This document shows, piece by piece, positions 95 to 64,000 of a DNA stretch of 64,000 bases. Source of the stretch: Salvator merianae. Its lineage: Eukaryota; Chordata; Lepidosauria; Squamata; Teiidae. Location of the stretch: contig QVOM02000073.1 in the NCBI GenBank assembly GCA_003586115.2, forward strand, positions 45,245,469-45,309,468, written 5' to 3'. A program made the position numbers and the translations under genes. Every line of letters begins with the position of its first letter. Position 1 is the first letter of the stretch. Under the pieces are notes generated by a model, which searched no databases, was not told where the DNA came from, and saw only the letters and a program-made list of their open reading frames with translations.

Positions 95-7328
<7,234 letters not shown>

Positions 7329-36660: not shown

Positions 36661-38012
36661 TACTGGGTTTTAAAATATTGAAATTAATGTATCCCCGCTC
36701 CCCGAGACCTTTGGATACGGGGAAGGATAGAAATGAAAAAAAAAACACATAAAAAATAAATTAACTGATAGAACCTTAGTCTATTATGGATCAGAATTAT
36801 TTCTGATGAAACAAACTATGTGAATGAGACCCCAGGGCAGGGAACTCTTAACTATTGTAGGCACATGTGAAATTCCATAAAAGCGCTGCGGTTTCCTGTC
36901 ACGAAATGCCTGCTGTGTGACATGGGGACAAGGACAAAAGTTTAATCCCAAGCAAAGGATGTCGCTCCTCATCTTTGTTTGCCACTATGGACTGAGGGTG
37001 GGGTATCTGATCTGATGTATCAAAGGAGAGACTCAGAGGTTGTTTAGATGCCAGAGGCTGATGCGTTGCTTTAATAAGGGAAAGCAGAAAATACATCCTC
37101 AGTTTGTTTTGCTTCCATGGGTCCAAACTTGAGTGGGTGCTTTGGTGCGCCTATGTGCTTCTTTATGCTCTACATATTAAAGCAGCTAGAACTTTTTATA
37201 AACGAAGAAGATACTGGCATAGGAGAACGTGACAGCAGTGGGTGAGGGGACCAATGGGAATGTTACTATCCTGTGGACAACACATTTCCTTAAGAACAGT
37301 GGGAATGGATTGTTCCTCCTATTTGGCACTCATTCCTAACCATAGGCTGCATCTAGACAGAGTCAAAACCCCACACCTCTTTCAGAATTCTATTTGGTTT
37401 GCCAAATGTGATCATGGTGCTCCCAATACAGTCCCGAAATACAGACCCAATATCCCAAGTTTCAGGTATTCTGTTGCATGCTAAATTGTGGAATATCGAA
37501 CTAAGGTCTGGGCAAATCGAAATAATCCTAGGAGTATCCAGAATAGGAGAATAGGTAAGTGATGTCTAGAGGGAGCCGTAGTGCCTGTAGTTCCATGGCC
37601 ATCTGCTTTGCATGCCAGAAACCCAGGTTTGATCCCATTTGTCTAGAAAGAGATGAGGGCTAACCACATCCACACTGATGCGCGAATACCATATGGGCAC
37701 ATCCATACAATCACCAGTAGGCAGGCTTGTCTTGTGGATACCATTACTTAAACAACGTAGGAAGGTTCGATCCATCATTTGATTGGTATAAAGGGCCAAA
37801 CTGGAGCAGTGGGGTTGCTGTAATTTCTACCTCCACCTTTCTCTCTCTTCCCCTGCTACAACTTTCCCTACCCGTTTCTAGTAGATATTCATTTCTAAGA
37901 ATGGATTAGGATAGTTTAACCCTTACACAGATGTACTAGATTGGTTTAGGAAGATATTTTATAAAGCTAGAAATATTGGGAAAAAGCACACCTAAAGAAC
38001 CTTGCACAAGAT

Positions 38013-39173
38013 TTTATTGTGATCTTGACAATTTAAATACTTTCATTATCATCTTGCAGTATAACAACACAAGAGATCCGTTTCACTATAAATTATAACA
38101 TAAACACGTATTAAATTACAGATGCCATTAAATTTGACGGAAACAGGAGTAATATTTTGACAGAGAGGCAACAAGAGAGAACACTACCAATGATAACCAA
38201 GTACAAAATATGAAGTATTAAATATTAAATAATGACAATTACTTTAAAACACTGCTTTCAATAGAAAAGTAATACTTAGGAACATATTACTTTCTGATGT
38301 TGATCAGAAACTGTTTAGACTATACAATATTAAATATATTAAATAGAATAGAAATAAGTAAGTTCAATGCAAAATCAATACATGTACAGTACTTCTACCT
38401 GATTTGATGGATAAAAGCAGACAACTATTATGTCACACACCTGCACGGGATTTGTACAAAAATTCATCAGACAAACACACACACATCATGTTAAACTGCA
38501 ATGTGTAAAAATGTTCTCTGTTAGGACCTTGTACTGCAAGCAGTTCAAAAGAAAATGGCAAAGAAATGGAATTATAAAAAATTATAAATAAGATTTTCTT
38601 TTTGATACTTTCAGATTGCTTCAACAGTGTCATGTATGATGATACTTTACATGGGAATTTGCTAGGATGCCAATTATGAAATGTGGACAGGAAGAGAAAT
38701 GGGCCTATGCCCGCACATGATCCATCCACGTGATCCATCTACCACACAAAACGGGTACATAAAATGGGACCCATGCACATAAAGAGGCATGGAAATATAT
38801 TTGCTGACATAGACATGTATATATAGTTGCATTCACACACAGCAAAAAGAAAGCAAGAACCTCTGAGGCAGCTCAGAGACAACTGATGGTTCTGAGGTGA
38901 GACCCTTCACAGGACAGTCTGCCCCTCCCCCTCTCAGGAACGTTCTAGGCTGAAAAAGGTGGACTAGAGATGGGATCAGAACATGAGGAACACGCGCTAC
39001 TGTCTCCAGGGTTTTGTTTTGCTACGTGTGAACGCAACCTACTTATGACTGTGGCAGTTCAAATTATTACATTTCTTTTTTCCGGCAGCAAACATTTGGA
39101 ATACTGAACAGGAACAAGGTCTTGGGTTTAAGTCAAAGCTGTTGTTTCCCCTGCAAGAATGTTTTCCTGGACT
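38013..39173 (-). promoter_or_regulatory. Cytokine A 3' UTR: AU-rich elements and polyadenylation signal
   Basis: The AATAAA signal (minus strand) is at 38018-38013. About eight ATTTA pentamers (TAAAT on plus) lie between it and the stop codon, clustered at 38110-38345. ATTTA clusters destabilise many cytokine mRNAs through TTP/AUF1-type proteins. The same arrangement is present in copies B and C. Confidence 0.7.
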
Positions 39174-42100
39174 CTACTTCACATTTTTTTTCGATAGGCA
39201 TAGATCACGTATATTTTTAACATAATTCTCTAGGTCTTTGTAAAAGTCCTTCACAGTTATTTGATTACCTCTAGGGGTGGTACAATTGTCCTTGAATAGA
39301 AGAAGAAAAAAAAAATCTCAGGCAAAATAAAAGGCAAAAATAACCACATCCATCATTTGACTTTTTAAAGAGAAGTCGTGTACCTTAGGAGCCCCTGTTT
39401 GATTTCCCAAAGAACACACATACAAGAAGGGGTAACCTGAGGCTAGATTTCTCGGCTGTCTACAGATCTGTCAGAAATGTGGGTAGTAGTATCATGTGCA
39501 TTGCCCTGTCCCATGCCTTGATGTGAAACCCTTAATCTAGTAAATGTTCTGCCCCACAGTCATGCTTCAGCTGCGTTGCACTGGAAAAGGACAAAGGACA
39601 GCTTGCTTTATGTGCCAAACAAGGCTGACAGCACTGATGTGCAGCACCAGCCTTAGTCACCATGGCCTTTTCCACATGGCCCCTTCTTCCAGAACGGATT
39701 CTGCCCCATGGTCATGCTTCAGCTGCATTGAATGCAATACGGACTGGGCAGGCTTGGGTGCTCAGTGCTGAGCTCTATAACTGGCCCAGGAGTAATACTA
39801 TGGGGGACGCTTTCCAGTGGCACACTAGTGGCAAGGACAGGAGTGAAATGGGCTGTACACATGCAAACTGCCCTGTCCCCCTCTACTTGCACCTGTCCCA
39901 GCTTGGTACTGTTGCTTATTCCAAGATGGGATGGCCCACCCTGCTCCAGAATGGCAAGCATGAAAAAGCCTCAGCCCTGAAACACATGTGGGTACATCAA
40001 GCTCTTGGTCCTAAATGAGTCATTGGCCCTTTCAGCCTTGGGCTGTTAAATTGACACATTGTGACTCACGGCACACTTAGTCTGTATGGTGAACCAATAT
40101 AGTCCCCAGTAGATTGGCTCGTCCACACAGGACTACCCCATGGAGTGTTATGTGGTGCCAAAATGGCAACCAATCCTGCTCCACCGGTAAACTGCTTATA
40201 ACCAGTCCACAAGTATGCCGTGGTGGCATACCAGACCACAGAAAAGGTGCGGATGACACATGACTGTGGGCAATTATACAGTGTCTGGCCTTCAAAGCTG
40301 GTTCAGCCTGGACTGCCTAGCATGGCCAGCTCAGCGCAGGAATTGGCAGGCAAAAGGAAGCTGGAATGCATGCTGAGGGAAGGAACACATCCCATAGCCT
40401 CGTTTTTGTTGGTGGAATCAAATATATATTCTCAATCCAAAGTCTAGATCTCCGCTGTGCCTGTGCAATGGGATCCCTCCCTCTGCTTGTCCTAGTTCCC
40501 ATGGTTTTCTGAATGGGTGCTCCTTGTGAACTGAGCTGCACTGTCACTGCAGGAAAACACGCTGTGTTTGTGCGTGGCCTCCTGTACCTGCACACAGTGG
40601 ATGAGGAAGCCTGAAGGTGCAGGCATGGAGACTTGGGAATGACATCCTTGGGGACAGCAGAGGAACTGTCAGGCCCTTCTCCTGAGGCTGTGAAGGAGGC
40701 CATCCAGTACAGACCAGGGACTGGCACAGTGGAGACATGGACCCTGTCCTTGCCCTTCGTTTGAAGTCCACATGGCACTGGAAAACTGTCTTTTGATCTG
40801 ACCCATTAAACACTGGCTGCTACTGCTAATTAGCATGGGATATATGGAGACCTGAGTTTATTTTTGTCTACCCACAAATATATTCTGTTAATGCTAATGT
40901 TTAATGTGGATTTTAATTATGCGGGTTTTTTTACTTTAAGGAAGCTCTTTCCTTACATTTGCAAGGATAAATCTTAGATGTTTTCATTGCTAATTTTTTT
41001 TTCCTGTTTGTTGTTTCTTTGTTTGCATATCTATCCCACCCATTACCCTAATGTTTGAGGTAAGATTATTATAAAACCAATAAGATAAACAGAGACAAAA
41101 TGGAATTTATTAAAAAAAACCACAAATAGCAGTGCCTGAAAAGGGAGGGCAAGATAATTTTTCAGCCAAAGTCTAGGATAAAGAGGTGTATCTTTATCAT
41201 GTGCATATAATGAAGGGGTAAGATGCACCTAAGATGTGAGATTCTTCCTCATCCTGTGGGCCACTACAGAGAAGACCCCGTCAAGTGCTTCCACACCTTT
41301 AAGGTGTGATAGTGGAGGCACCGCCAAGAGGGCTTCTCCCACAGATCTAAGGTATCATAACTATAAATAAAATTGCAAAAAAAATGTTCAAAGTTGCATT
41401 CTATACTTACATAGCCTCCAACCAAGATCTTTGGTGCCTTGATTCTTGCGACAATGCTACTGCAAGCATCTTGAGAGAGATTCTGCAGAGCTTTGTTGAT
41501 TTCACAGAATATTTCATTGTAATTTGAGCACTATAAAGAAGATGATAGAATGGTCGGAGCACTGTAATTTATTAACATTTCTGAAAGCAGCATTCATACT
41601 ATGTTTCCCAAATTTAGCATTTTAACATTGAGCATTCACCTAATCGAACCCCCGTTTAGAAGCAACTTTCCCATTGCTATTCTCAGCTGTCCACCCTTAA
41701 CTGAAAACTTTTCCTCTAGATTTACTTCTTCATAATATGTTTTCATTTCACTGCCTCTTCAGCCTTTCATATACGGACAGATATTTTGAGCCCAGGTATA
41801 CCATATACCAAACAAATACAGCAGTCCAGAATGATGAGTGAAGAATGATTTGGTGCCTACTTTGGTAACGGTTGTGTAAAGTCCTGACCTATCCTGATCA
41901 TTTAAAATGATCCGAGTTTTGTGGAATGTCATCATTTGGACACAAAGCTGCTCCCATCCACCCCCCAAAATGCTTTCTTTTAACAATGCCGTAGCTTGCA
42001 TATGATCTGTTAAGGCTTTTACTTACTATTGGTTTACCGGAAAAGTCGATATCGCTGATTGGTTCGTCACCACATTTCTGCAAAACAAAATATAACCAAT

Positions 42101-43321
42101 CAAGCAAGGAATACTTTGTTTTTGTCTTCTGTGGTTAGAAAGCCTGGGCCAATGAAATCCACCTCTGATGCCTGCCCTTTCTATCAGCTTTGAAACCTTG
42201 AAATCATTGTATATAAAAGACCCTTGATTTTTGAATGTCACAGATATCCTTTGTTCTTAAGAATTTTTTCATGCTGTACATGGGGCAGATTATCCCCTTC
42301 TAGTTTGTAAAACAATGCAAATTACAATACGGTCCTTGATAACAGGACACTTCTTCATGTAGAAGTGGGTAGAAAGCAAATGGGGTTGACCAACAGACTA
42401 CCTAACGCACATTCCCAATTCCATTTTAGCGGAAGAAATGATAAAGGACTATAATAGGCCAATGAAGTCTTCCTGTCTTTAGTATGTCTGATGCAATACT
42501 TGGCACACCTACTGCCATCAAACTTTAAAGTTCTTCTCCTGTAGACTCGCCTGAGTGGTAAAAAGTTGCTATTTCAGGGTGATGATGACAATCAAGACTC
42601 TTAATACCAGTATCCTTCATATTTAATACTGATCTACGACTTAACAGAATCAATGCACCAGCCAATATCAAGCACATGGGGAAAGGTCTGTGAGAAGGGG
42701 AAAGGGATATTTACTTCTTCCTCCAAATTTTATGCTGCTCAATGTACTTTTGGTGGAGGGACACCATTCTGCTTCCTGAGCTTGTGTGGGCAGAGAAGAC
42801 TATCCACCCACATCCTGTTTTCCCAAGCACCAGAGACCCAGGAGCGTTTCTGACCCGTGTCTGTTTAGGCCTGTGGTAAAGAAGTAAGGAGCCCAAGGCA
42901 GAAGTTAAGGGAATGAATAATCCCAGTTTCAATATTAGCATTGCATCAGCTGTTAGACACAATATTTTCCTTCCAACCAATTCTGTTAAGAAGGTCCGAC
43001 TTCTAACAGAGATCAGAAACGCAAAAGGTAGCAATTTCCCCAAAGACTGTTGCTTCAAGCACATTCAGCTCACTCCTTGTCATTCTATAATTGTTAAGCA
43101 AGCAAAACATGCAGTAAAATAAACAAAGATATGTGATTTACCTTCAAGTCAGCTTTTGTTTCAGTGATATTATTGCACAGGTTTTTCACATCTCTTCTCA
43201 ATTCATCATTCTTTGGTTCCTTTGCGCTTCTTTTATGCATGGCTATAGGTTGTAATGAAATAGTAGAAGTAATTTCTAAGAACACAGAGATCGCCAGGAT
43301 TACTTTCAAGACCATGATCAT
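39174..43321 (-). CDS. IL-4/IL-13-family cytokine, copy A (complete, four exons)
   Basis: Predicted secreted short-chain four-helix cytokine, expected to signal through IL-4Ralpha-type receptors in type-2 immunity (inference from family and locus). Exons on the minus strand: 43321-43142 (60 codons), 42077-42027 (17), 41530-41411 (40) and 39290-39174 (38 plus TAG), 155 aa in all. All introns are phase 0, and all acceptors and donors are AG/GT (donors GTAAAT, GTAAGT, GTAAGT). Residues 1-22 form a signal peptide (MIMVLKVILAISVFLEITST). Cysteines are at 49, 62, 78, 86, 100, 120 and 148. N-glycosylation sequons are NIT (51), NLS (94) and NCT (119). FCEINKALQNLSQDACSSI in exon 3 recalls the IL-13 segment around its YC...GCS cysteines. 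TVKDFYKDLENYVKNI is the helix-D candidate. Exon sizes sit nearer IL-13 than IL-4. Orthology is not settled. Confidence 0.88.
39440..40830. mobile_element. Degraded DNA-element sequence in cytokine A intron 3
   Basis: This family-5-like sequence (TTTTCCACATGGCCCCTTCT and GCCCCATGGTCATGCTTCAG) is shared with unit C at 62880-64000 and largely deleted from unit B (49500-49660). Several chance frames run through it. Confidence 0.45.
40960..41360 (-). mobile_element. L2-type LINE tail in cytokine A intron 3
   Basis: TTTGCATATCTATCCCACCC, GGTAAGATTATTATAAAACC and CACAGATCTAAGGTATCATA are shared with copy B at 49700-50025, so the insertion predates the A/B duplication. Confidence 0.55.
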
Positions 43322-43377
43322 CTTCTTTTGATTGAAGATGGGATCCTTAGTAATAGAGGCTTGCTTGAACACCCAAT

Positions 43378-43465
43378 ATTTATATCATGCACCCAGCAAA
43401 AAAAAAAGAAAAGCTGACGTAAAATTTTGTTTCCCCCACCACAGCATCCTAATGATAAGATAAGA
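43378..43465 (-). promoter_or_regulatory. Cytokine A core promoter: TATA box, CRE-like, NFAT-like and double GATA sites
   Basis: TATAAA (minus) is at 43384-43379, about 60 bp before the ATG. Farther upstream come a CRE-like TGACGTAA (43415-43422, as read on plus), an NFAT-like GGGGGAAAC (minus, 43437-43429) and two overlapping GATA sites TGATAAGATAAG (43453-43464 on plus). The order and spacing are kept in copy B. GATA-3 and NFAT are the known drivers of mammalian IL4/IL13 transcription. Binding here is inference. Confidence 0.65.
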
Positions 43466-43584
43466 TGCAAAATTAGTAATTTTGCTGCACAGTTTTGTAA
43501 GATTAGTGTTTTTAGCATTTTCCTAGTATATTTTTTATTATTAAAGTGTTAATTTTTGCATATTACTGTATTTTATTTTCGTTT

Positions 43585-44375
43585 TGTATTACTTTTTAGC
43601 TTGGACCCTGAGACCATTAGAGCAGGTTATATACCAAATAAATATATCAAAAAATAAAACTGAGAACATTTCAAGTACCAGTAGCCTCGCCTTCTCTTTC
43701 AGTCCCAGGCTCAGCCAGCATATGCAATAGTCTGTCTCCAGAGGGACTGTCTTCCTCCCTAGACGCCTACCTGGACCATAACCCCTTACCTGGATGTTTA
43801 ATACCAATTGAGGATGGGTTTCCATTTCGCTGACCGGGATGAGCTGCCATGCTTCCATTTGTGCCGGCAGGAGGCGCCCCACAATGGGCACGGCATCCCA
43901 GCAGAGGGCGGAAATGCCACAGGGGCTGCCCTTGCAGGAAGGACCCAATTTCTCCTCCTCTGAAAGAGTGCCCTTCCAAGGCAAGCCGGGCACTGTCGCC
44001 ATGGCGCCTGCCCTCAGGCCCTCTCCCCCAGTCACATGGAGACTGGTCTGAGATGAGTCAGGTGGGCAACCTTGAGGATGGTGCTCCAGTTGATAAACAT
44101 TTGAGAAAGCTGTGCCTAGTCTCTGTCTTAGGGTTTTTGCTGGTCCTAGGTGAAGATCTGACACGGCCGTTCTTTCTCCTGGCCTTTTATATTTGTGTCG
44201 TGTCTAGGCTTAGTTAGACCCTGTACACACACACAAGCATTCATAGATCCAGTATCACGTCCAGTAGTGATGGCATGGCTTTGTGGACGCCTAACCAGAT
44301 TCGCTGTATGTTTGTTATGTGAGTGAGTCAAAATAAATTGCCTACAAGATCTCTGTGCTTTACTGTTGAGAAACA
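43585..44375. other. Duplicated region upstream of cytokine A, possible retroelement remnant
   Basis: This stretch is nearly identical to 54735-55515. At 43600-43660 it has an L2-type tail (CCTGAGACCATTAGAGCAGG then an AT-rich run). Farther on, plus-strand TTTTATATTTG, AAAATAAA (44330) and a GTTGAGAAACA end resemble an LTR. A minus-strand frame (43589-44164) stays open in both copies but has no family resemblance and no frame-specific constraint that I can see. Confidence 0.4.
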
Positions 44376-44376
44376 T

Positions 44377-46620
44377 GAACTCAGCTTGCTAGGTCGGGGT
44401 GACCCGTCAAATGGCCAACCATCAGGTATTCACCCAACAACAGCAAACTGGGGGCCACCACTGAAAAGACCCTATCCCAGATGCCCATGCTTCTAGTTAT
44501 TGAAGGTGGTGGTACAACCAGGAGGGCCTCATCTGCAGATCTTAAGGCATGGGCAGGTTGATATGGGAGAAGGCGTTCCTTTAGGTATTTGGGGCCCAAG
44601 CCATTTAGGGCCTTATAGTTTAAGGTTAACATCTTGAATTGGGCTCCATGCTTCTCTTTTAAGACCAGCATGATATGCATCCGGCCAGCCGTTCTAGTCA
44701 GCAGTCTTGCTACTGCATTCTGCACCAGTTGCAGCTTCCAAACCATCTTCAAGGGTAGCCCCATGTAAAGAGTGTTACAGTAATCCAATCCTGAAGTTAC
44801 CAAAGCATGAATTACTGTGGCCAAATCGTCCCTGTCCAGAAGGGGTCATAGTTGGCAAACCAGCCATAGCTGGAGGTATGCATTCTTGGCCACTGCCTCC
44901 ACCTGAGTTTCAAGTGTAAGTGCAGAGTCCAAGAGTACACCCAGATTCCACACCTGTCCTTTCCAGGGCAAAGCAACCCCATCAAGGGCCAGATGCTTTC
45001 CAACTTCCTGGACCCGAGACCCTGTGATACACAGTACCTCCGTCTTGTCTGAATTCAGCTTCAATTTATTGGCCCTCATGCAGCACATTACTGCATCCAA
45101 GGACCTGTCCAACCCTTCAATCACCTGTCCTGATTCAGATGGCACAGATATGTAGAGCTGAGTGTCACCTGCATATTGATGACATCTGACTCCAGATCTC
45201 CTGATGACCTCCCCCAGTGGCTTAATATAGATATTGAAAAGCATGGGAGATAAGATCGATCCCTGAGGAACCCCACACCTGAGTTCCCAGGATGTTGAGC
45301 AGGAATCTCCCACAACTACCTTCTGGAATTTTACCAGGGAATGATCAATCCATGACAATGGGCTTATCATCAGCCCTCCTATCGATGGATTCTCATCAGT
45401 CGGGTCTGTGCCAAAGACCAGATCGAGGGTATGGCCTGCTGTGTGAGTTGGGCCGCTTACAAACTGAGACAGCCCCATAGTTGTCATGGAGGCCATGAAG
45501 AACTGAGCTAGGCCACTGAGGATAGTCTCCACATGGATGTTAAAATCTCCCAACAACACTGTGGCAGGGGCCTCCAATACCACATTGGAGATCACCTCAA
45601 CCAGCTCAGATAGGGAGGCTGCTGGGCAGCGGGGTGGGCGGTACACCAGCAACATCCCTATTCCGTTTCTGTGGCCCAGTAACAAAAACAGTCCCTCAAA
45701 CGCAGTTGTAGAGCAGATTGGTTGTCTGGTAAGAGAGATAGAAGTCCTATGGACTACAGCAACACTCCCTCCCTCCCTTCCGGTCTGGAACAGTGCTGCA
45801 TCGAATAGCCTGGGGGACAAAGCTGGGTAAGACTAGGCCCACCCAGTTCATCTATCCAGGCCTCTATAAAGCATGTCAGATCTGCCCCTTTATCCAGGAT
45901 TAAGTCATGGATGAGTGATGTTTTATTCTGGACTGATCTGACATTCAAAAGCAGCAGCACCAGGGTGGTGGGCCACTTGGCAGACATCCCCAAGTTCTGC
46001 CAGTTGGAAGGCAGAACAGAAGGAGTGATAGCTTTAATACATCTAACACTCCTTCTCCTAATCTGTGGCTTCTGCCTCCCAGCGCCATATCTCCTCCTGC
46101 CTGTCATCACAGGGATGGTAGCCCCCTGTGACAGTTCTCTCCCTCCAACCCTGCCTTGACACATTATTCCCTCCCCACGAAACGAATAAAAAATACTACA
46201 ATGAAAAAGCTAAAACAGTACTAAACAACAAGTAAATTAAAAAGTACATTTTTTTGTTTTATAAAACCCTCCAATAAAAAAGAAATAGAAGAAAAAGAAA
46301 AACAAGGGACTTGGTCAGAGTGGCCCTTGGGGCGGCCCTTATATAAGTTCACAGCAGCTGGAATAACGGGCCAGGTGTTGGTTGAGGGCTGCCTTGCAGG
46401 CCCTAGAGTTGTCAAGAAGCACCAACTCCCACAGCTAGCAGGTTCATCAGGTGCAACCACCTCTACAATCTGAAACAGGAGTCCAGCAGGCCAGAGGCGG
46501 TATCAGGAATACTGTTGACTAGGCCATAAGGAAGTTGATGGAACTGTCCCTTACAGGGCGGATGGAGTGGCCCTGCATCCCCCCTGTCTTCCTCCTGCAG
46601 ATTTAAAGAGGTTGTAATGT
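44377..46620 (-). pseudogene. L2-type LINE with internal deletion, between units A and B
   Basis: Minus-strand LINE protein remains. The endonuclease N-terminus (LNVRSVQNKTSLIHDLILDK) is near 46000. The endonuclease core (LGDFNIHVETILSG and FVSGPTHTAGHTLDLVFGTD) is in the frame 45820-44846. That frame continues, after an in-frame deletion, into RT motifs CGVPQGSILSPMLFNIYI and YAGDTQLYIS (catalytic YADD changed to YAGD). A later frame at 44824-44381 gives SGLDYCNTLYMGLP and LQLVQNAVARLL. It is broken and catalytically dead. It starts immediately beyond the end of unit A and ends just short of unit B. Confidence 0.88.
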
Positions 46621-47965
46621 TGGTGTGCTAATTTATTAATAAATATAACCATAAAAGAGTGTATGTCACTATTCTATTAATAAATTTAGATGAGATAAAT
46701 CATAAAGGTTTAAAATAAGGAGATTTTTTAAAAAATACGTTTAAAATAAGGGTAAATGATCAGCATTATTTTTGATAAGCCAGACTTGATGAGTAAGGGC
46801 AGGGGTCTCTTGACTGTTGTGGGAACAAGTGAAATTCCATGAAGGTGCTGCGGTTTCCTGTCACGAAATGCCTGCTGTGTGACATGGGGACAAGGACAAA
46901 GGTTTAATCCCAAGCAAAGGATGTCGCTCCTCCTCTTTGTTTGCCACTATGGACTGAGGGTGGGGTATCTGATCTGAGGTATAAAGTTAGAGAATCAGAG
47001 GTTGTTTAGATGCCAGAGGCTGATGTGTTGCTTTAATAAGGGAAAGCAGAAAATATATCCTCAGTTTGTTTTGCTTCCATGGGTCCAAACTTCAGTGGGT
47101 GCTTTGGTGTGCATATGCACTTCTTTATGCTCTACATATTCCAGCAGCTAGAACTTTTGATAAATGAAGAAGATACTGGCATAGGAGAACGTGACAGCAG
47201 TGGGTGAGGGGAGCAATGGGAATGTTACTATCCTGTGGGCAACACGTTTCCTTAAGAACAGTGGGAATGGATTGTTCCTCCTATTTGGCACTCATTCCTA
47301 ACCATAGGCTGCATCTAGACAGAGTCAAAACCCCACACCTCTTTCAGAATTCTATTTGGTTTGCCAAATGTGATCATGGTGCTCCCAATACAGTCCCGAA
47401 ATACAGACCCAATATCCCAAGTTTCAGGTATTCTGTTGCATGCTAAATTGTGGAATATCGAACTAAGGTCTGGGCAAATCGAAATAATCCTAGGAGTATC
47501 CAGAATAGGAGAATAGGTAAGTGATGTCTAGAGGGAGCCGTAGTGCCTGTCGTTCCATGACCATCTGCTTTGCATGAAAGAAACCCAGGTTTGATCCCAT
47601 TTGTCTAGAGGGCTAACCGCTTCCATACTGATGCACAAATACCGTATGGGCACATCCATACAATCACCAGTAGGCAGGATTGTCTTGTGAATACCGTTAC
47701 TTAAACAACGTAGGAAGGTTCGATCCATCATTTGATTGGTATAAATGGCCAAACTGGAGCGGTAGGGTTGCTGTAATTTCTACCTCCACCTTTCTCTCTC
47801 TTCCCCTGCTACAACTTTCCCTACCCGTTTCTAGTAGATATTCATTTCTAAGAATGGATTAGGATAGTTTAACCCTTACACAGATGTACTAGATGGGCTT
47901 AGGAAGAAATTTTATAAAGCTAGAAATATTGGGAAAAAGCACGCCTAAAGAACCTTGCGCAAGAT

Positions 47966-52100: not shown

Positions 52101-54475
52101 GGGAACGGGGAAAGAGACTATTTGGGAGGGACTGTCCTTTTTTGGGGACGTGCTGAGTGAGGGATCCCCATTTTGTGCCATCCAATGACAGACTTTGTGG
52201 GTGGGCACGAAGCACAGCAGTTTCTTCTGCCTCCATTATCCCCCCTTCTGTCGCTGCCAGGGGAAAAGAAACCGTCCTCCTTTTTACTTCGCTAAGCTGC
52301 GGTCCTTTCTCTTTCTTTATCCCCCATTCAACACTGCCAGGAAGAAATTAAAGGCTTCCTCCACTTCCGTCACCTCTTTAAACCAAAAAACAAACTGTGC
52401 TTGTTTGGGGTTGCAGTCCTCTTGCCCCAACAAAGAACCCACTCAAGATGAGTTCTGCCGTCGGCAGCACACAGCTACACAGTGGGGACACATGCCGCTG
52501 CCGATGTCTCGGGGGAAGATGAGACAGAGTCCATTTGCTGGCGATGAACTGCACTGTCAAAATAGTAGAGCCCCCCCACGTTCCCTTCGTTACAGACCTC
52601 TCCCTGCTTTTGCGCTACTTTTAAATTGCGCAATTGCGCAAAAGTGCACTTGCAAGGAGCAGAAATAGCCATCAGCCCTTTAAAAAGCCCTTTAAAAAGC
52701 CCTTTTAAAAGCCCTTTAAAAAGACCTTTAAAAAGCTTGCAGAACATACTTTTAAAGTTCTGCTTATGTAGATAGAGGCTGTAGTGGGGAGAAGGAGCAA
52801 ATGGTGAATGACTAGTAACTCTGCCAAGTGAATCCATGTTCTGAGGCAGCAGTGGGGACCTACGGAGAGCGGAGCTTGACTTTCCCGCCCCTGTGACGTC
52901 ATGGTTTGAATGTTGGGACTGCAGCCAATCACTGACTGCACGGGGAGGGGAATTTGGCAAGGGGTGGAGGCAGTAAAGGTGCTGTTTCTCCATGCCAAGC
53001 ACGGGAAATATCAGTGGGGGAACGAGCAGGTATGAATTGAGTCCATGTTAAACTGTAACTGTGGGAACGACCAGAAGACGAATTCAGTCCTTGTACTCTT
53101 CTGATACGGATTAAATTTACGATGTCGAAACGTGGTCTTTGTTTTTGTCTTTGGTGGTTAGAAAGCCTGGGACAGCAAAATCCACCTCTGATGCCTGCCC
53201 TTTCTATCAGCTTTTTTATTTTTTTAATGTTTTATTTTTGTTATATTTCAGATATATAAAATTACATTCTACATTACATTCCTAATATTATTATTGACTT
53301 CCTCCTTCCTCCTTCATCCGCATCTGATGCCTGCCCTTTCTATCTGCTTTGAAGCCTTGAAATCATGGCATATAAAAGACCCCTGATTTTTGCATGTCAC
53401 AGATATAATTTGTTCCTAAGAATTTTTTCATGCTGTACATGGGGCAGATTATCCCCTTCTAGTTTGTAAAACAATGCAAATTACAATACGGTCCTTGATA
53501 ACAAGACACTTCTTCATGTAGAAGTGGGTAGAAAGCGAATGGGATGGACCAACAGACTACCTAACGCACATTCTCAATTCCATTTTAGCGGAAGAAATGA
53601 TAAAGGACTATAATAGCCCAATGAAGTCTCCCTGTCTTTAGTGATGCAATAAGATTTGGAAACAAACTACTTGGCATGGCTACTGCCATCAAACATTATC
53701 TATGAGCCTGCCAATGTTCTTCTCCTGTAGACCAAGCCTGAGTGGTAAAAAGTTGCTATTTCAGATTGATAATCCATCAGATTTAATACTGATCTATGAC
53801 TTAACAGAATCAACGCACCAGCCAATATTAAGCACATGAGGAAAGGTCTGTGAGAAGGGGAAAGGGATATTTACTTCTTCCTCCAAATTTTATGCTGCTC
53901 AATGTACTTTTGGTGGAGGGACACCATTCTGCTTCCTGAGCTTGTGTGGGCAGAGAAGACTATCCACCCACATCCTGTTTTCCCAAGCACCAGAGACCCG
54001 GGAGCGTTTCTGACCCGTGTCTGCTTAGGCCTGTGGTCAAGAAGTAAGGAGCCCAAGGCAGAAGTTAAGGGAATGCATAATGCCAGTTTCAATATAGCAT
54101 TGCATCAGCTGTTAGATGCAATATTTTCCTTCCAACCAATTCTGTTAAGAAGGTCTGACTTCTAACAGAGATCAGAAACGCAAAAGGCAGCAATTTCCCC
54201 ATAGACTTTGCTTCAAGCACATTTAGCACACTCCTTGTCATTCTATAATTGTTAAGCAAGCAAAACATGCAATAAAACAAAGATATTTGATTTACCTTCA
54301 AGATAGCTTTTGTTTGAGTGATATTTGTGTACAGGCCTTGCACATCTCTTGTGAATTCATTGTTCTCTGGTTCCTTTGCGCTTCTTTTATGCATTGCTAT
54401 AGGTTGTAATGGAATAGTAGAAGTAATTTCTAAGAACATAGAGATCGCCAGGATTACTTTCAAGACCGTGATCAT
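49119..54475 (-). CDS. IL-4/IL-13-family cytokine, copy B (complete, four exons)
   Basis: Paralogue of copy A with the same architecture. Exons on the minus strand: 54475-54296, 51877-51827, 50197-50078 and 49235-49119 (TAA), 155 aa, all phase 0, with intact AG/GT sites. The signal peptide is MITVLKVILAISMFLEITST. By hand alignment 39 of 155 residues differ from copy A (13 in exon 1, 4 in exon 2, 9 in exon 3, 13 in exon 4), about 75% identity. Cys49 of copy A is Tyr here (QGLYTN), leaving six cysteines at 62, 78, 86, 100, 120 and 148. Sequons NIT (51), NVS (94) and NCT (119) remain. Introns 1 and 2 carry transposon insertions absent from copy A. Nothing suggests a pseudogene. Confidence 0.88.
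49700..50025 (-). mobile_element. L2-type LINE tail in cytokine B intron 3
   Basis: It is collinear with 40960-41360 in copy A, slightly deleted. An (AT)n run follows at 50030-50047. Confidence 0.55.
50272..51428 (-). mobile_element. Copy-B-specific insertion in cytokine intron 2, LINE-tail-bearing
   Basis: Compared with unit A the uninterrupted sequence ATGTTTCCCAAATTT (near 41600) is split here by about 1.16 kb. TGTTTCC appears on both sides (50269-50275 and 51437-51443), as expected for a target duplication. The left end has an L2-type tail on the minus strand (CATGCTGCTTGGCATTATAA and AAGCAGTTTATAATAAT). The interior is not recognised. Confidence 0.7.
51918..53136 (+). mobile_element. 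Family-4 DNA transposon, copy 3, in cytokine B intron 1
   Basis: This is a 1,219-bp element starting GGCCGCATTCCGACACGGC and ending ACGATGTCGAAACGTGGT, with a perfect CTTT duplication (51914-51917 and 53137-53140). The empty site is preserved in copy A (AATACTTTGTTTTTG near 42110), which confirms both boundaries. No transposase is encoded. Confidence 0.92.
52673..52735. repeat. 12-bp tandem repeat (GCCCTTTAAAAA)n
   Basis: About five imperfect units occur inside the family-4 element. The related position in copy 1 (about 20155) has a single unit, so the array expanded in this copy. Confidence 0.9.
53210..53340 (-). mobile_element. Short retroposed fragment with a long target duplication
   Basis: About 100 bp of AT-rich sequence is bracketed by about 24 bp of direct repeat (CTGATGCCTGCCCTTTCTATC on each side) that occurs once in copy A (42158-42185). 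On the minus strand the insert ends in an A-rich tail, as expected for target-primed insertion of a 5'-truncated LINE. Confidence 0.7.
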
Positions 54476-54540
54476 CTTCTTTTGAATGAAGATCTACCAG
54501 TGGGATCCTTAGTAACTGATGCTTGCTTGAGCACCCAATA

Positions 54541-54620
54541 TTTATATCATGCACCCAGCAAAAAAAAACCTGACGTCAAATTTTGTTTCCCCCACCACAA
54601 CATCCTAATGATAAGATAAG
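54541..54620 (-). promoter_or_regulatory. Cytokine B core promoter: TATA box, perfect CRE, NFAT-like and double GATA sites
   Basis: TATAAA (minus) is at 54546-54541. A perfect palindromic CRE TGACGTCA lies at 54571-54578, an NFAT-like GGGGGAAAC (minus) at 54593-54585, and TGATAAGATAAG at 54609-54620 on plus. Copy A has TGACGTAA instead of the perfect CRE. Confidence 0.65.
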
Positions 54621-55689
54621 ATCCAAAATGAGTAATTTGCTGCACAGTTTTGTAAGATTAGTGTTTTTAGCATTTTCCTAGTATTTTTTTTATTATTAAA
54701 TTGTTAATTTTAGCATATTACTGGAAAAAATTTTTTGTTTTGCATTACTTTTTAGCTTGGACCCTGAGACCATTAGAGCAGGTTATATACCAAATAAATA
54801 TATCAAAAAATAAAACTGAGAACATTTCAAGTACCAGTAGCCTCGCCTTCTCTTTCAGTCCCAGACTCAGCCAGCATATGCAATAGTCTGTCTCCAGAGG
54901 GACTGTCTTCCTCCCTAGACGCCTACCCGGACCATAACCCCTTACCTGGATGTTTAATACCAATTGAGGATGGGTTTCCATTTCGCTGACCGGGATGAGC
55001 TGCCATGCTTCCATTTGTGCCGGCAGGAGGCGCCCCACAATGGGCACGGCATCCCAGCAGAGGGCGGAAATGCCACAGGGGCTGCCCTTGCAGGAAGGAC
55101 CCAATTTCTCCTCCTCTGAAACAGTGCCCTTCCAAGGCAAGCCGGGCACTGTCGCCATGGCGCCTGCCCTCAGGCCCTCTCCCCCAGTCACATGGAGACT
55201 GGTCTGAGATGAGTCAGGTGGGCAACCTTGAGGATGGTGCTCCAGTTGATAAACATTTGAGAAAGCTGTGCCTAGTCTCTGTCTTAGGGTTTTTGCTGGT
55301 CCTAGGTTGTTCTTTCTCCTGGCCTTTTATATTTGTGTCATCTCTTGGCTTCGTTAGACCCTGCACACACACACAAGCATTCATAGATCCAGTATCACGT
55401 CCAGTAGTGATGGCATGGCTTTGTGGACGCCTAACCAGATTCGTTGTATGTTTGTTATGTGAGTGAGTCAAAATATGCTGTCTACAAGGTCCCTGTGCCT
55501 TACTGTTGAGAAACACAAACTCAGCCTGCTAAGAAGAGGTAGCCTGTCAAATAGCTAACAATCAGGTATTTACTGAACAGCAATATTCTTTGCCATCACA
55601 ACAACACTGTGAATAAAAATCAGAAATGTATCAGAAAAAAGAGGACACACACTGAGGTCTAACGTCACAGGGATACTCTGTATTAGGGG

Positions 55690-56060
55690 GGAAGAAGGAT
55701 CGAGTACATGTTTCAACTGTTCTCACATTTGTATGATAACACGGACTTAATTCGCTAGTTCTCACTCTTCATTTTTCCCTTCTCGGCATGGGGGAAACTG
55801 TACCTTTCTCTCTACATCCCTCACCACATTTCCCCCCCTGTGTGGTCAGCAATTAGAAGCAGTTTCAGTGTTCAAATCTTAACTTCACAAGGGCGGGAAA
55901 GTCAAACTCCACCCTCCATATTTCCCTGTTGCTGCATTAGAACAGGGAATCCCTCGGTGGCAAAACTGGTCATTTATCGTTTGTTCCTTCTCCCCTCCAG
56001 CCTGTATCCCCTCAAGCACAACTTCATTTTCACTTCTACCACACAGTAAAGCATCTTGAA
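55690..56060 (-). mobile_element. Old family-4 transposon fragment
   Basis: Blocks such as GACTTAATTCGCTAGTTCTC, GTGGTCAGCAATTAGAAGC and GGGCGGGAAAGTCAAACTCC match 25290-25620 with many differences. Confidence 0.7.
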
Positions 56061-59870: not shown

Positions 59871-60755
59871 AATGCATGAATAAATAAAATTATAGAGCCT
59901 TTATTATTTCTGATGAGTCAAACTATGTGAATGAGATCCCAGGGCAGGGGTCTCTTGACTGTTGTGGGCACAAGTGAAATTCCATGAAAGTGCTGCAGTT
60001 TCCTGTCACGAAATGCCTGCTGTGTGATATGGGGACAAAGACAAAAGTTTAATCCCAAGCAAAGGATGTCGCTCCTCATCTTTGTTTGTCACTATGGACT
60101 GAGGGCGGGGTATCCGATCTGAGGTATCAAAGGAGAGACTAAGAGGTTGTTTAGATGCCAGAGGCTGATGCATTGCTTTAATAAGGGAAAGCAGAAAATA
60201 CCTCCTCAGTTTGTTTTGCTTCCATGGGTCTGAACTTCAGTAGGTGCTTTGGTGTGCATATGCGCTTCTTTACACTGTACAGATTCCAGCAGCTAGAATT
60301 TTTGATAAACAAAGAAGATACTGGCATAGGAGAACGTGACAGCAGTGGGTGAGGGGAGCAATGGGAATGTTACTATCCTGTGGGCAACACATTTCCTTAA
60401 GAACAGTGGGAATGGATTGTTCCTCCTATTTGGCACTCATTCCTAAACTTATGCTGCATCTAGACAGGGTCAAAACCCCACACCTCTTTCAGAATTCTAT
60501 TTGGTTTGCCAGATGTGATCATGGTGCTCCTAATACAGTCCCGAAATACAGACCCAATATCCCAAGTTTCAGGTATTGTGTTGCATGCTAAATTGTGGAA
60601 TATCTAACTAAGGTCTAGACAAATCGAAATACTCCTAGGAGTATCCAGAATAGGAGAATAGGTAAGTGATGTCTGGAGGGAGCCATAGTGCCTGTAGTTC
60701 CATGGCTATCTGCTTTGCATGAAAGAAACCCAGGTTTGATCCCATTTGTCTAGAA

Positions 60756-61271
60756 CAGTGGTTCCCAACTTTTGTTTTGGCCATACCCCACCTAAGCATC
60801 TCTAAAATCCTGATCCCTCCCCACACCGTGACATATAATTCTTATTATTCCAAAAGTGAACTCCTATTCACATGGAGGAAGCCTAAAAGGTCATTAACTT
60901 GGTCTAAAGAAGCTTCCAAAGATCATGGCATCCATGTTAAATGAACACTGAGAGGAGTGGGTGTGTTTGGAATGAAAGTTGCCTCACTTTTCTGTGCTTA
61001 TGTACTCTCTAGTTTACTCTGTGATCTCACCACTCCTCTCTTTTAGCGGGTTTTCCCCTTCTCCATTGTCACCAGCTGACCACCGTGTACATTCTGCTTT
61101 TAATTTTAAAAATGTGTATGTCACAATATATATTTATATACTGTATATGAGCCCCTTAGAACCATAAGAAATGCAAAAAATTCACTGTTAATAACTCGTT
61201 CTCGAATTGCCCCCCCCTTAAAAATCAAATTGCCCCCCTGTGGGGCATGTGCCCCACATTGGGAACCATGG
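60756..61271. mobile_element. hAT (Charlie-like) non-autonomous element specific to unit C
   Basis: The left end is CAGTGGTTCCCAACTTTTG. The right end CATTGGGAACCATGG is its inverse. An 8-bp duplication (GTCTAGAA at 60748-60755, GCCTAGAA at 61272-61279, one mismatch) flanks it. The empty site is seen in units A (near 37645) and B (near 47605). Confidence 0.88.
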
Positions 61272-61646
61272 GCCTAGAAGGAGACGAAGAACTAACCACT
61301 TCCATACGGATGCACGAACACCGTATGGGCACATCCATACAGTCACCAGTAGGCCGGCTTGCCTCGTGGGTACCGTTACTTAAACAACATAGGAAGGTTT
61401 GATCCATCATTTAATTAGTATAAATGGCCAAACTGGAGCAGTAGAGTTTGCTGTGACTTCTACCTCCACCTTTCTCTCTCTTCCCCTGCTACTACTTTCC
61501 CTACCCATTTCTAGTAGATATTCATTTCTAAGAATGGATTAGGATAGTTTAACCCTTACATAGATGTGCTAGATGCGTATGGGAAGACATTTTATAAAGC
61601 TAGAAATATTGGGGGAAAAACATGCCTAAAGAACCTTGCTCAAGAA

Positions 61647-62615
61647 TTTATTGTGATCTTGACCATTCAAATAATTTCATTATCATCTTGCAGTATAACA
61701 ACACAAGAGATCTGTTTCACTATAAATATAACATAAACACATATTAAATTATAGATTCCATTAAATTTAATGGAGACAGGAATAATGTTTTGATGGAGAG
61801 GCAACAAGAGAGAACAGTGCCAACAAAATAACCAAGTACAAAATATGAAGTATTAAATATTAAATAATGACAATAACACTTAAAAGACTGCTTTCAATAG
61901 AAAATTAATAGGAACATATTGCTTTCTGATGTTGATCAGAAATTGTTAGATTATATAATATTAAATATATTAAACAGAATAGAAATAAATAAGTTCAATA
62001 CAAAATCAATAGATGTACTTCTACCTCAATTGATGGATAAAAGCAGACAGCTATTTTGCCAAAGATCTGCATGGGATTTGTAGAAAAATTCATCACACAA
62101 ACACACACACATACACACACATCATGTTAAGCTGCAACATGTAAAAATGTTCTCTGTTAGGACTGTGTACTGCAAGCAGTTCAAAAGAAAATGGTAAAAA
62201 AAAAGGAATTATAAATAAAACAAAAATATTTCTTTTTGATACTTTCAGAGACAGGCACGTATCTATGGTTGCGTTCACACACTGCAAAAAGAAAGCAAGA
62301 ACCTCTGAGGCAGCTCAGAGACAACTGATGGTTCTGAGGTGAGACCCTTCACAGGACAGTCTGCCCCTCCCCCTCTCAGGAATGTTCTAGGCTGAAAAAG
62401 GTGGACTAGAGATGGGATCAGAACATGAGGAACACGTGCTACTGTCTCCAGGGTTTTGTTTTGCTACGTGTGAACACAACCTACCTATGACTGTGGCAGT
62501 TCAAATTATTACATTTCTTTCTTCCGGCAGCAAACATTTGGAATATTGAACAGGAACAAGGTCTTGGGTTTAGGTCAAAGCTGTTGTTTCCCCTTCAATA
62601 ATGGTTTCCTGGACT
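61647..62615 (-). promoter_or_regulatory. Cytokine C 3' UTR with AU-rich elements and AATAAA
   Basis: AATAAA (minus) is at 61652-61647. The TAAAT (minus ATTTA) cluster at about 61740-61985 is retained. Part of the sequence before the stop is deleted relative to A and B near 62250. Confidence 0.65.
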
Positions 62616-62729
62616 TTACTTCACATTTGTTTCCTGTAGGCATCGATTGCGTATAGTTCTAATATAATTCTCTAGTCTTTCGTAAAACTCCTTCATAGTT
62701 ATTCGATCTTTTGTGATGGTACAGCTGTC
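62616..62729 (-). CDS. IL-4/IL-13-family cytokine, copy C, last exon only (rest beyond the window)
   Basis: The acceptor TTCAAG precedes DSCTITKDRI, and the exon ends NRCLQETNVK with TAA. This gives 37 codons, one fewer than copies A and B. The frame is intact. The pattern IT.K.FY..LENY...I...C....NVK is shared by all three copies. Against copy A there are about 18 substitutions plus a one-codon gap in 38 positions, although the neighbouring UTR is only a few percent different. The NCT sequon is lost (SCT). Exons 1-3 should lie past 64000. Confidence 0.82.
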   Translation of the reverse strand, partial: DSCTITKDRITMKEFYERLENYIRTIRNRCLQETNVK

Positions 62730-64000
62730 CTTGAATAGAGGAAGAAAAAGAAATCTCAGCCAAAACAAAGGGCAAAAATAACCACATCCATCATTTGACT
62801 CTTTAAAGAGAAGCCGTGTACCTTAGGAGCCCCTGTTTGATTTCCAAAGAACACACATACAAGAAGGGGTAACTCGAGGGTATGAGCCCAGCCCTGAGAC
62901 ACCACTGGCAGTGGGCTAGATTCCTGGGCTGTCTACAGATTTGTCAGAAATGTGGCTGGTTGTATCATGCGCATTGCCCTGTCCCATGCCTTGACGTGAA
63001 ACCTATTTCTAAGCTCCACTTTATGATGGTGGCTTGCCATTCAGCTGGAAAGCACTTCTGTACTCAGAATAGCACGGACGAGTGTGCTGAGACCTCAAGG
63101 GTCTGGGCAGCAGGACTGGAAAAGGACGGCTTGCTTTATGTGCCAAACAAGGCTGACAGCACTGATGTGCAGCACCAGCCTTAGCCACCATGGCCTTTTC
63201 CACATGGTCCCTTCTTCCAGAATAGATTCTGCCCCATGGTCATGCTTCAGCTGCATTGAATGAAACACGACTGGGCAGACTAGTATGCCGAAAATGACAC
63301 CCAACCCCAGGATCGTCGTAGAGCTCAATCTTGAGCTCTATAACTGGTCCAGGGGTAATATACTGGACCACAGAGGCCCAGTATACTATGGGGGACCCTT
63401 TTCAGTGGCACTCCAGTGGCAAGGACTTGAGTGAAATGGGTGTGCACATGCAAACTGCCCCGTCCCCCTCCACTTGCAACCCGACCCAGGTTGGCACTGT
63501 TGTTTATTCCAGGATGGGACAACCCAGCCTGCTCCAGAAAGGCAAGCGTGAAAAAGTCTCAGCCCTGGAGCACATGTGGGCACATCAAGCTCTTGGTCCT
63601 AAATGAGTCATTGGCCCTTCAAAGCTGGTTCAGGTTGGGCTATCCACCATGCCCGGACTGCCTAGCATGGCCAGCCCAGCGCAGGAGTTTGCAGGCAAAA
63701 AGAAGCTGGAATACTTGCTGAGGGAAGGAACACATCCCATAGCCTCGTTTTTGTTGGTGGAATCAAATATATATTCTCAATCCAAAGTCTAGATCTCCGC
63801 TGTGCCTGTGCAATGGGATCCCTCCCTCCGCCTGTTCTAGTTCCCAGGATTTTCTGAATGGTTGCTCCTTGTGAACTGAGCTGCACTGTCACTGCAGGAA
63901 AACACGCTGTGTTTGTGCGTGGCCTTCTGTACCTGCACACAGTGGATGAGGAAGCCTGAAGGCACAGGCATGGAGACTTGGGAATGACAGCCTTGGGGAC

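What the first reader, a model, noticed from the sequence alone, without database searches (positions are those of the whole stretch)
36781..64000. Tandem array of at least three IL-4/IL-13-type cytokine genes next to KIF3A
Two complete genes and one partial gene have identical four-exon phase-0 structure, signal peptides, helix-D-like last exons and shared promoters. They lie convergent with KIF3A, where mammals and birds keep single IL4 and IL13 genes. A lineage-specific expansion of a type-2 cytokine here would be notable for reptile immunity.
Basis: partly seen in the sequence, partly recalled or inferred. Interest (0 to 1): 0.92.

Follow-up and report, generated by a model that had tools for sequence, protein, structure and literature searches.

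The report
Five-gene IL-4/IL-13-like cytokine array
Where mammals and birds carry one IL-4 and one IL-13 gene, this vertebrate (probably a lizard or snake) has a row of five closely related, fast-changing immune-signal genes and no recognisable separate IL-13, which bears on how allergy-type immunity evolved.

Summary
The window lies in a held 2.05-Gb assembly, so I extended it by 160 kb. Between KIF3A and RAD50 lie five tandem genes (A-E, minus strand), each with four coding exons, phase-0 introns and a signal peptide. Gene E stops six codons early; one inverted exon-3 remnant is broken.

Similarity to IL-4/IL-13 is weak but specific. The Pfam IL4 match stays below its cut-off. Position and exon design fit the IL-4/13 family. 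Exon 3 (120 bp in 5 of 5) lies outside the published tetrapod IL-4 and IL-13 ranges and inside that of undivided IL-4/13 genes of shark, gar and amphibian. My limited searches found no separate IL-13.

The copies are not assembly duplicates. Each exon has a different best tree, suggesting gene conversion. Frames are kept beyond neutral expectation, and an exon-partitioned codon test supports positive selection (p 0.0013), though simpler counts give dN/dS near 1. Elephant shark has four IL-4/13 genes in this locus; nine paper searches showed me no amniote array.

The parts
95..7328 (+). Last exons of KIF3A (human residues about 523-699) up to its stop; convergent with the cytokine genes
   Evidence: tblastn with recalled human KIF3A, exons at 95-7325
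43142..43321 (-). Gene A exon 1: signal peptide and helix A
   Evidence: Open frame, donor GTAAAT, TATA-type box 63 nt upstream
42027..42077 (-). Gene A exon 2 (51 nt)
   Evidence: GT-AG, phase 0
41411..41530 (-). Gene A exon 3 (120 nt): helix B and a short helix C
   Evidence: GT-AG, phase 0
39174..39290 (-). Gene A exon 4: C-D loop, helix D, stop
38013..39173 (-). Gene A probable 3' UTR: 8 ATTTA motifs at nt 600-1300 (2.7 expected), AATAAA at nt 1155
54296..54475 (-). Gene B exon 1
51827..51877 (-). Gene B exon 2
50078..50197 (-). Gene B exon 3 (identical in DNA to gene D exon 3)
49119..49235 (-). Gene B exon 4
43322..43463 (-). Gene A promoter: two GATA-type sites at -142/-137, GGAAA (NFAT-type) at -113, TATA at -63
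   Evidence: motif scan; consensus matches only
54476..54619 (-). Gene B promoter: two GATA-type sites at -144/-139, GGAAA at -115, TGACGTCA at -103, TATA at -71
   Evidence: motif scan; consensus matches only, and not independent of A (copies about 90% alike)
62616..62729 (-). Gene C exon 4. Its exons 3, 2 and 1 lie beyond the window at L001:584-703, L001:1657-1707 and L001:2780-2959
   Evidence: Genes D (L002:1193-5209) and E (L003:4571-9954) follow
36789..44446 (.). Tandem unit A
   Evidence: self-BLAST
46758..55582 (.). Tandem unit B (44448-51916 is 95.6% identical to 70547-78002 around gene D)
   Evidence: self-BLAST
59903..64000 (.). Start of tandem unit C; continues beyond the window
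   Evidence: self-BLAST

Best explanation
This is the type-2 cytokine locus (KIF3A - cytokines - RAD50) of a vertebrate in which an IL-4/IL-13-family gene has been amplified in tandem to five copies. SHOWN: five four-exon, phase-0 genes in one orientation; GT-AG at 15 of 15 introns; hydrophobic N-termini; six cysteines at the same places in all five; no net frame shift among at least 129 coding changes; exon-by-exon mosaic relationships; a codon-model signal of excess replacement change. INFERRED: each gene makes a secreted short-chain four-helix cytokine of about 130 residues that acts like IL-4/IL-13 through an IL-4R-alpha receptor, paired with the common gamma chain or IL-13R-alpha1. Transcription would be driven in type-2 lymphocytes by GATA/NFAT-type promoters and RAD50-linked control elements, with AU-rich mRNA turnover. 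Gene conversion swaps exons among copies while selection diversifies surface positions, most of all in helix D, around a conserved hydrophobic core. The likely outcome is a set of ligands that differ in receptor preference, strength or escape from pathogen interference. I file them as IL-4/13-type genes, not as IL-4 or as IL-13.
For: Gene models and extension to five copies. KIF3A on one side, RAD50 on the other. Whole-genome search with protein B: 20 matches at E<=1, 18 in this array, the 2 others E 0.37 and 0.52. Pfam IL4 has the lowest E-value for B (0.014; 0.0089 without signal peptide). Alignment z-scores (500 shuffles): 8 of 20 comparisons with IL-4/IL-13 exceed 3.3 (A-human IL-13 6.5, B-mouse IL-13 6.6, C-human IL-4 5.8), 0 of 30 with six other cytokines do. 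Yardstick: human IL-4 v human IL-13 about 4; highest pair outside known relatives 3.9, IL-3 v IL-13. Profile of the five v IL-4: 29.75, 0 of 100 column shuffles reach it (max 19.3); global score 17.7, next 7.1. Exon 3 of 120 bp lies in the published undivided IL-4/13 range of 120-129 bp (PMC4905449). ATTTA 8, 9 and 8 in nt 600-1300 of the A, B and C 3' regions against about 3 expected. Frame: 80 of 109 non-coding indels have frame-shifting length; at least 10.3 expected in the coding set, none net, P about 3e-5. Exon-partitioned M2a v M1a 2dlnL 13.3, p 0.0013; exon 4 omega 2.5. Different best tree for each of 4 exons (no support values); runs test 153 v 202 expected, 0 of 5000.
Against: No curated profile cut-off is reached. 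Pfam IL4 is listed for 2 of 5 proteins, while EME1-MUS81_C is listed for 3 of 5 (best E 0.04); for B, PUB10_N has 16.0 bits against IL4's 15.9; for A the lowest E is Cecropin, 0.016; IL13 is not listed for any. No PDB sequence match to a cytokine and no database homologue. The local IL-4 profile match covers only 36 columns around helix D. With all five proteins the IL-13 comparison is no better than shuffles (2 of 100 reach it; 0 of 100 with A+B only), and IL-5 also beats its shuffles (0 of 100). 12 of 20 IL-4/IL-13 z-scores are 3.3 or less; for D, IL-5 (3.3) exceeds both IL-4s. Helix C is short, has a proline in A and two in B and is not amphipathic; helix D of C is not significantly so (P 0.15). 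Pairwise dN/dS is 0.57-1.18 and a single partitioned omega of 1.49 does not differ from 1 (p 0.076). One BLAST alignment placed two gaps inside A/B exons; lengths are equal, so any such indels compensate. E has an early stop. No expression or fold data.
Confidence: 0.85

Rival explanations
1. The array is an expansion of true IL-4, with IL-13 lost or moved elsewhere in the genome. (Overlaps with the best explanation; the odds do not sum to 1.)
For: Position next to KIF3A, where IL-4 sits in mammals and birds; the best profile match is IL-4; exon 4 opens with a cysteine and ends helix D with one, as recalled for human IL-4.
Against: Exon 3 of 120 bp lies outside the published tetrapod IL-4 range of 126-177 bp; single-sequence z-scores for A, B, D and E are highest with an IL-13.
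Confidence: 0.35
2. The array is an expansion of IL-13 and the IL-4 gene was lost.
For: A to human IL-13 z 6.5 and B to mouse IL-13 z 6.6; NIT motif in helix A and an N-(L/V/F)-S...C stretch in exon 3, resembling recalled IL-13.
Against: IL13 not listed by Pfam for any of 5; exon 3 exceeds the published IL-13 range of 105-114 bp; the five-protein profile comparison with IL-13 is not better than shuffles.
Confidence: 0.12
3. Only one or two copies work; the rest are recent duplicates drifting neutrally.
For: Pairwise dN/dS 0.57-1.18; the early stop in E and the broken inverted exon 3 show that decay occurs here.
Against: No net frame shift and GT-AG at 15 of 15 introns; positive-selection test p 0.0013 with exon-specific trees; hydrophobic helix-D positions are kept in all five.
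Confidence: 0.2
4. The genes belong to another short-chain cytokine family of the same neighbourhood (IL-5/GM-CSF/KK34-like).
For: Same exon design (recalled); local profile scores with IL-5 and GM-CSF (19.4 and 19.7) exceed that with IL-13, and IL-5 beats its 100 shuffles.
Against: Location between KIF3A and RAD50; global profile scores for IL-5 and GM-CSF are under 2 against 17.7 for IL-4; z-scores 3.3 or less. KK34 itself was not compared.
Confidence: 0.04
5. The copies are an assembly artefact (haplotypes or one gene laid out in tandem).
For: None beyond the repeat itself.
Against: Non-coding divergence of 6-10% among A, B and C, 42 indels between A and B, exon divergence up to 29% (but exon 3 of B and D is identical), a 1.2-kb repeat in intron 1 of B alone, no N in 224 kb.
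Confidence: 0.02

Closest known systems
Elephant shark IL-4/13A-D genes of the TH2 locus
   Same: Several undivided IL-4/13-type genes in one locus (PMC4690019, passages), four coding exons with phase-0 introns, exon 3 of 120-129 bp (PMC4905449 section 6, which used two of the shark genes).
   Different: A cartilaginous fish; four copies reported. Here five, in a probable amniote, with signs of gene conversion and a positive-selection signal.
Frog and spotted gar il4/13
   Same: Single or tandem il4/13 in the kif3a/rad50 locus (PMC9465101, passage; it does not say which species has how many), same exon design.
   Different: Not amniotes; gar has one gene (PMC5440397, passage).
Mammalian and avian IL-4 and IL-13
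   Same: Same locus, four exons, phase-0 introns, helix D in exon 4.
   Different: There two distinct single genes with exon 3 of 126-177 bp (IL-4) or 105-114 bp (IL-13); here five close copies of intermediate exon-3 size and no distinct IL-13 found.
Teleost IL-4/13A and B
   Same: Undivided IL-4/13 type; ATTTA motifs in salmonid 3' UTRs; local duplication of IL-4/13A in sea bass (passages of PMC5440397 and PMC4905449).
   Different: Split between two loci by whole-genome duplication, not a five-gene array in one locus.

Membership tests
IL-4/13 family (undivided sense) | Lies between KIF3A and RAD50 | tested here: met
   KIF3A 95-7328; RAD50 110740-178100 in continued coordinates; recalled human queries
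IL-4/13 family (undivided sense) | Four coding exons, three phase-0 introns | tested here: met
   5 of 5 gene models; no transcript data
IL-4/13 family (undivided sense) | Exon 3 of 120-129 bp, as in shark, gar and amphibian | tested here: met
   120 bp in 5 of 5 against the range in PMC4905449 section 6
IL-4/13 family (undivided sense) | Sequence closer to IL-4/IL-13 than to other short-chain cytokines | tested here: met
   Weakly met: z above 3.3 in 8 of 20 IL-4/IL-13 and 0 of 30 other comparisons; profile clear for IL-4, mixed for IL-13, IL-5 also above its shuffles. Comparison sequences recalled
IL-4/13 family (undivided sense) | Cysteines for two core disulfides | tested here: inconclusive
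   Six cysteines (62, 78, 86, 100, 120, 148) invariant in 5 of 5; pairing not testable here
IL-4/13 family (undivided sense) | Secreted four-helix bundle | tested here: inconclusive
   Hydrophobic N-terminus (A, B); helices B and D amphipathic in A and B, helix A in A only, helix C in neither, helix D of C not significant; no fold made
Pfam IL4 (PF00727) | Score at or above the curated cut-off of 23 bits | tested here: not met
   Best 15.9 bits (16.6 without signal peptide); 2 of 5 proteins listed. Not filed as a Pfam IL4 member
Tetrapod IL-4 proper | Exon 3 of 126-177 bp | tested here: not met
   120 bp in 5 of 5
Tetrapod IL-13 proper | Exon 3 of 105-114 bp; match to IL-13 profile | tested here: not met
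   120 bp in 5 of 5; Pfam IL13 not listed for any of 5
IL-4/13 family (undivided sense) | Signals through IL-4R-alpha | not testable with these tools
   needs recombinant protein and receptor

The most novel reading that the evidence does not exclude
In this probable amniote lineage there is no IL-4/IL-13 pair. The type-2 locus holds instead five undivided IL-4/13 cytokines whose exons are shuffled among copies by gene conversion and whose receptor-facing helix D is under diversifying selection: a small, evolving repertoire of type-2 ligands. This would mean either that the IL-4/IL-13 split was undone here or that it happened separately in mammals and birds.
Probability: 0.35. Interest if true: 0.78.

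Novelty: new variant of a known kind. Interest (0 to 1): 0.62.

Why it matters
A 2022 review states that reptiles, among others, must still be studied to tell when the ancestral IL-4/13 gene split into IL-4 and IL-13 (PMC9465101, passage). A complete KIF3A-RAD50 interval with five intermediate-type genes and no visible IL-13 makes that question directly testable with sequence data that exist. If expressed, the array is also a natural series of type-2 cytokine variants for studying which helix-D surfaces set receptor choice. In primate IL-13 the two sites with selection signals likewise lie in the C-terminus, one of them in the receptor interface (PMC5569703, passages).

Tried and rejected
Protein database search with gene B: 3 candidates, none at E<=1. 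PDB sequence searches with B, with A+B and with all five: nothing relevant. Rfam: 0 matches in the window. Whole-genome search with Pfam IL4: 0 matches, and none in 14 controls either, so uninformative.

A separate IL-13 gene: three IL-13 exon-2-like patterns gave no hit in 224 kb; tblastn with recalled cytokines and IRF1 gave nothing convincing (best IL-13 hit E 0.022, with a stop); an exon-chain search of 93960-111000 and 7400-39000 gave one implausible chain and none (its own control missed exon 2 of gene A); a relaxed exon-1 search (5 and 8 candidates) and motif scans gave nothing I judged plausible. A strongly diverged IL-13 is not excluded, and the genome-wide Pfam IL13 search never got an answer.

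Exon 4 v flanks first looked like strong selection, but the flanks are partly homogenised by conversion; I rely instead on the exon-partitioned codon test. The unpartitioned M2a test (p 2e-6) is inflated by conversion and is not used as proof. The codon runs treat E's stop codon as missing and keep the codons after it; the optimiser was stopped at 60 iterations and convergence was not checked. A simple neutral simulation for A v B gave P 0.07 for excess replacement. The 3' UTR segment bounds were set after I had read the sequence.

I saw no amniote tandem IL-4/13 array in the listings of the nine answered paper searches. Passages were read of PMC9465101, PMC5440397, PMC4690019, PMC4905449, PMC5569703, PMC8226699 and PMC5742104, and section 6 of PMC4905449. 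One paper dates IL13 to monotremes (PMC8226699); this conflicts with the statements that birds have IL-13.
Full report
WHAT IS THERE. Genes A and B lie complete in the window on the minus strand, and the last exon of a third gene, C, lies at 62616-62729. A and B have coding exons of 180, 51, 120 and 117 nt, GT-AG splice sites and all introns in phase 0. They encode 155 aa each, with 116 identities. The copies sit in tandem blocks that are mostly 87-95% identical, with parts of introns at 75-81%. KIF3A's last exons lie at 95-7325 on the plus strand, so it is convergent with the array (recalled human query).

EXTENSION. The window is G000:C1688:45245469-45309468 of a 2.05-Gb assembly. I fetched the next 160 kb. 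In coordinates continued from the window (1-224000, no N), gene C runs 62616-66959, D 75193-79209 and E 88571-93954. Exons 1-3 have the same lengths in all five; exon 4 is one codon shorter in C and E. E has a stop six codons before the usual one, giving 148 aa against 154 in C. An inverted exon-3-like remnant with a stop lies at 84574-84693, plus strand. RAD50 runs 110740-178100, minus strand. The whole genome gave 20 matches to protein B at E<=1, of which 18 are in this array; the 2 elsewhere have E 0.37 and 0.52.

NOT AN ARTEFACT. Non-coding divergence among A, B and C is 6.2%, 9.0% and 9.6% over about 2.5 kb. A and B differ by 42 non-coding indels in 5.7 kb. Single exons differ by up to 29%, although exon 3 of B and D is identical. 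The closest long blocks, around B and D, are 95.6% identical over 7.5 kb. B alone carries a 1.2-kb repeat in intron 1, and intron 3 is 2.1 kb in A but 0.8 kb in B (coordinates).

IDENTITY. Sequence evidence is weak but mostly points one way. Protein B's lowest-E Pfam hit is IL4 (E 0.014; 15.9 bits, cut-off 23; 0.0089 without the signal peptide). Two of five proteins list IL4 and none IL13. Unrelated families score about as well: EME1-MUS81_C in 3 of 5, PUB10_N at 16.0 bits for B, Cecropin at E 0.016 for A. Against ten recalled cytokines, 8 of 20 comparisons with IL-4 or IL-13 give z above 3.3 (A-human IL-13 6.5, B-mouse IL-13 6.6, C-human IL-4 5.8, E-human IL-13 4.7, D at most 3.8), and 0 of 30 with six other cytokines do, though D with IL-5 reaches 3.3 (500 shuffles each). 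For scale, human IL-4 v human IL-13 is about 4 and the highest pair outside known relatives, IL-3 v IL-13, is 3.9. In profile comparison the five together match IL-4 best (29.75; 0 of 100 shuffles, maximum 19.3; global 17.7 v 7.1 for the next), but the local match covers 36 columns around helix D. IL-13 is not beyond shuffles with five proteins (2 of 100) although it was with A and B (0 of 100), and IL-5 also exceeds its shuffles (0 of 100). No relevant PDB or protein-database match was found.

ARCHITECTURE. PMC4905449 (section 6 read) gives exon 3 as 126-177 bp in tetrapod IL-4, 105-114 bp in IL-13 and 120-129 bp in the undivided IL-4/13 genes of shark, gar and amphibian. Here it is 120 bp in all five. 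From memory of human IL-4, the exon-3 'ExFC' cysteine at the ninth residue (A, B, D; the cysteine alone in C and E) and the cysteine just after intron 3 also agree; these positions come from no call. Six cysteines are invariant in all five. Helices B and D are amphipathic in A and B, helix A in A only; helix C is short and not amphipathic, and helix D of C is not significant (P 0.15). The 3' regions of A, B and C hold 8, 9 and 8 ATTTA motifs in nt 600-1300 against about 3 expected (P about 0.01 each; neighbouring segments not significantly enriched), with AATAAA near nt 1150 in A and B and nt 963 in C. Promoters of A and B show paired GATA-type sites, an NFAT-type site and a TATA box; these are consensus matches in copies about 90% alike.

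IS IL-13 ELSEWHERE? Four searches of the KIF3A-A and E-RAD50 intervals, or of all 224 kb, found no credible separate gene. The exon-chain search missed one exon of its own control, so a diverged IL-13 is not excluded. A genome-wide IL13 search did not complete.

EVOLUTION. The exons have different histories: B and C are closest in exon 1, D and E in exon 2, B and D identical in exon 3, B and E closest in exon 4. The best tree differs for each of the four exons (no support values), and informative sites among A, B and C cluster in runs (153 v 202 expected, 0 of 5000 shuffles). Gene conversion or unequal exchange is the simplest cause. Frames are protected: at least 129 coding changes, non-coding rate 0.080 frame-shifting indels per substitution (80 of 109 indels, 994 substitutions, four block pairs that share copies), at least 10.3 expected, none net seen, P about 3e-5. 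One BLAST alignment placed two gaps inside A/B exons; exon lengths are equal, so such indels would compensate. Replacement change is high. With exon-specific trees M2a beats M1a (2dlnL 13.3, p 0.0013; 22% of sites at omega 5.2) and omega by exon is 1.4, 0.4, 1.9 and 2.5. The counter-evidence is that counting gives dN/dS 0.57-1.18, a single omega of 1.49 is not different from 1 (p 0.076) and a simple simulation for A v B gave P 0.07. In helix D, hydrophobic positions 128, 133, 134, 137, 140 and 144 are invariant in all five and 130 and 141 change only V to M or I, while most variable positions are polar. That is the pattern of a kept fold with a changing surface.

HOW IT WORKS. The likely mechanism is that of IL-4 and IL-13: secretion by type-2 lymphocytes, binding to IL-4R-alpha plus gamma-c or IL-13R-alpha1, STAT6 signalling. 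Nothing here tests binding. Diversified helix D would alter the second receptor chain's contact (inference from known complexes, recalled). Several ligands with swapped exons could give different receptor preferences, more dose, or harder targets for pathogen inhibitors.

WHAT IS KNOWN. Elephant shark has IL-4/13A-D in its TH2 locus (PMC4690019, passages); frogs, gar and elephant shark have single or tandem il4/13 between kif3a and rad50 (PMC9465101, passage). I saw no report of such an array in an amniote in the listings of nine searches.

VERDICT. Real, larger than reported, and a new variant of a known kind. The open parts are expression, fold, IL-4 v IL-13 v undivided status, and species. 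On re-check I corrected divergence ranges, E's stop (six codons, not five) and the frog statement, and added the rival Pfam and IL-5 scores; the odds did not need to change.

Noticed in passing
43581-44160 and 54736-55310 (also 79505-80785 and 94842-96137 in continued coordinates): A patch 300-900 bp upstream of exon 1, 98-100% identical between A and B and 88-95% to E, carrying an open minus-strand frame of 204/193 aa with no Pfam match. Possibly a conserved control element, an old exon or a retained repeat.
   Followed up: partly
32765-34207 and 57101-58513: Direct 84% match over 1487 nt on the 3' side of units A and C; probably spacer of the ancestral tandem unit, or a repeat.
   Followed up: no
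44849-45832: LINE-type reverse transcriptase fragment between A and B (Pfam RVT_1, E 2.9e-13); the block that holds it is repeated near gene D.
   Followed up: partly
26363-26949: GC-rich 33-bp minisatellite, 17.6 copies.
   Followed up: no
51918-53134: 1.2-kb interspersed repeat in gene B intron 1, with relatives near 195.6 and 215.5 kb in continued coordinates.
   Followed up: no
L003:4571-4684: Gene E ends six codons early, one residue after the last conserved cysteine; harmless trimming or first step of decay.
   Followed up: partly
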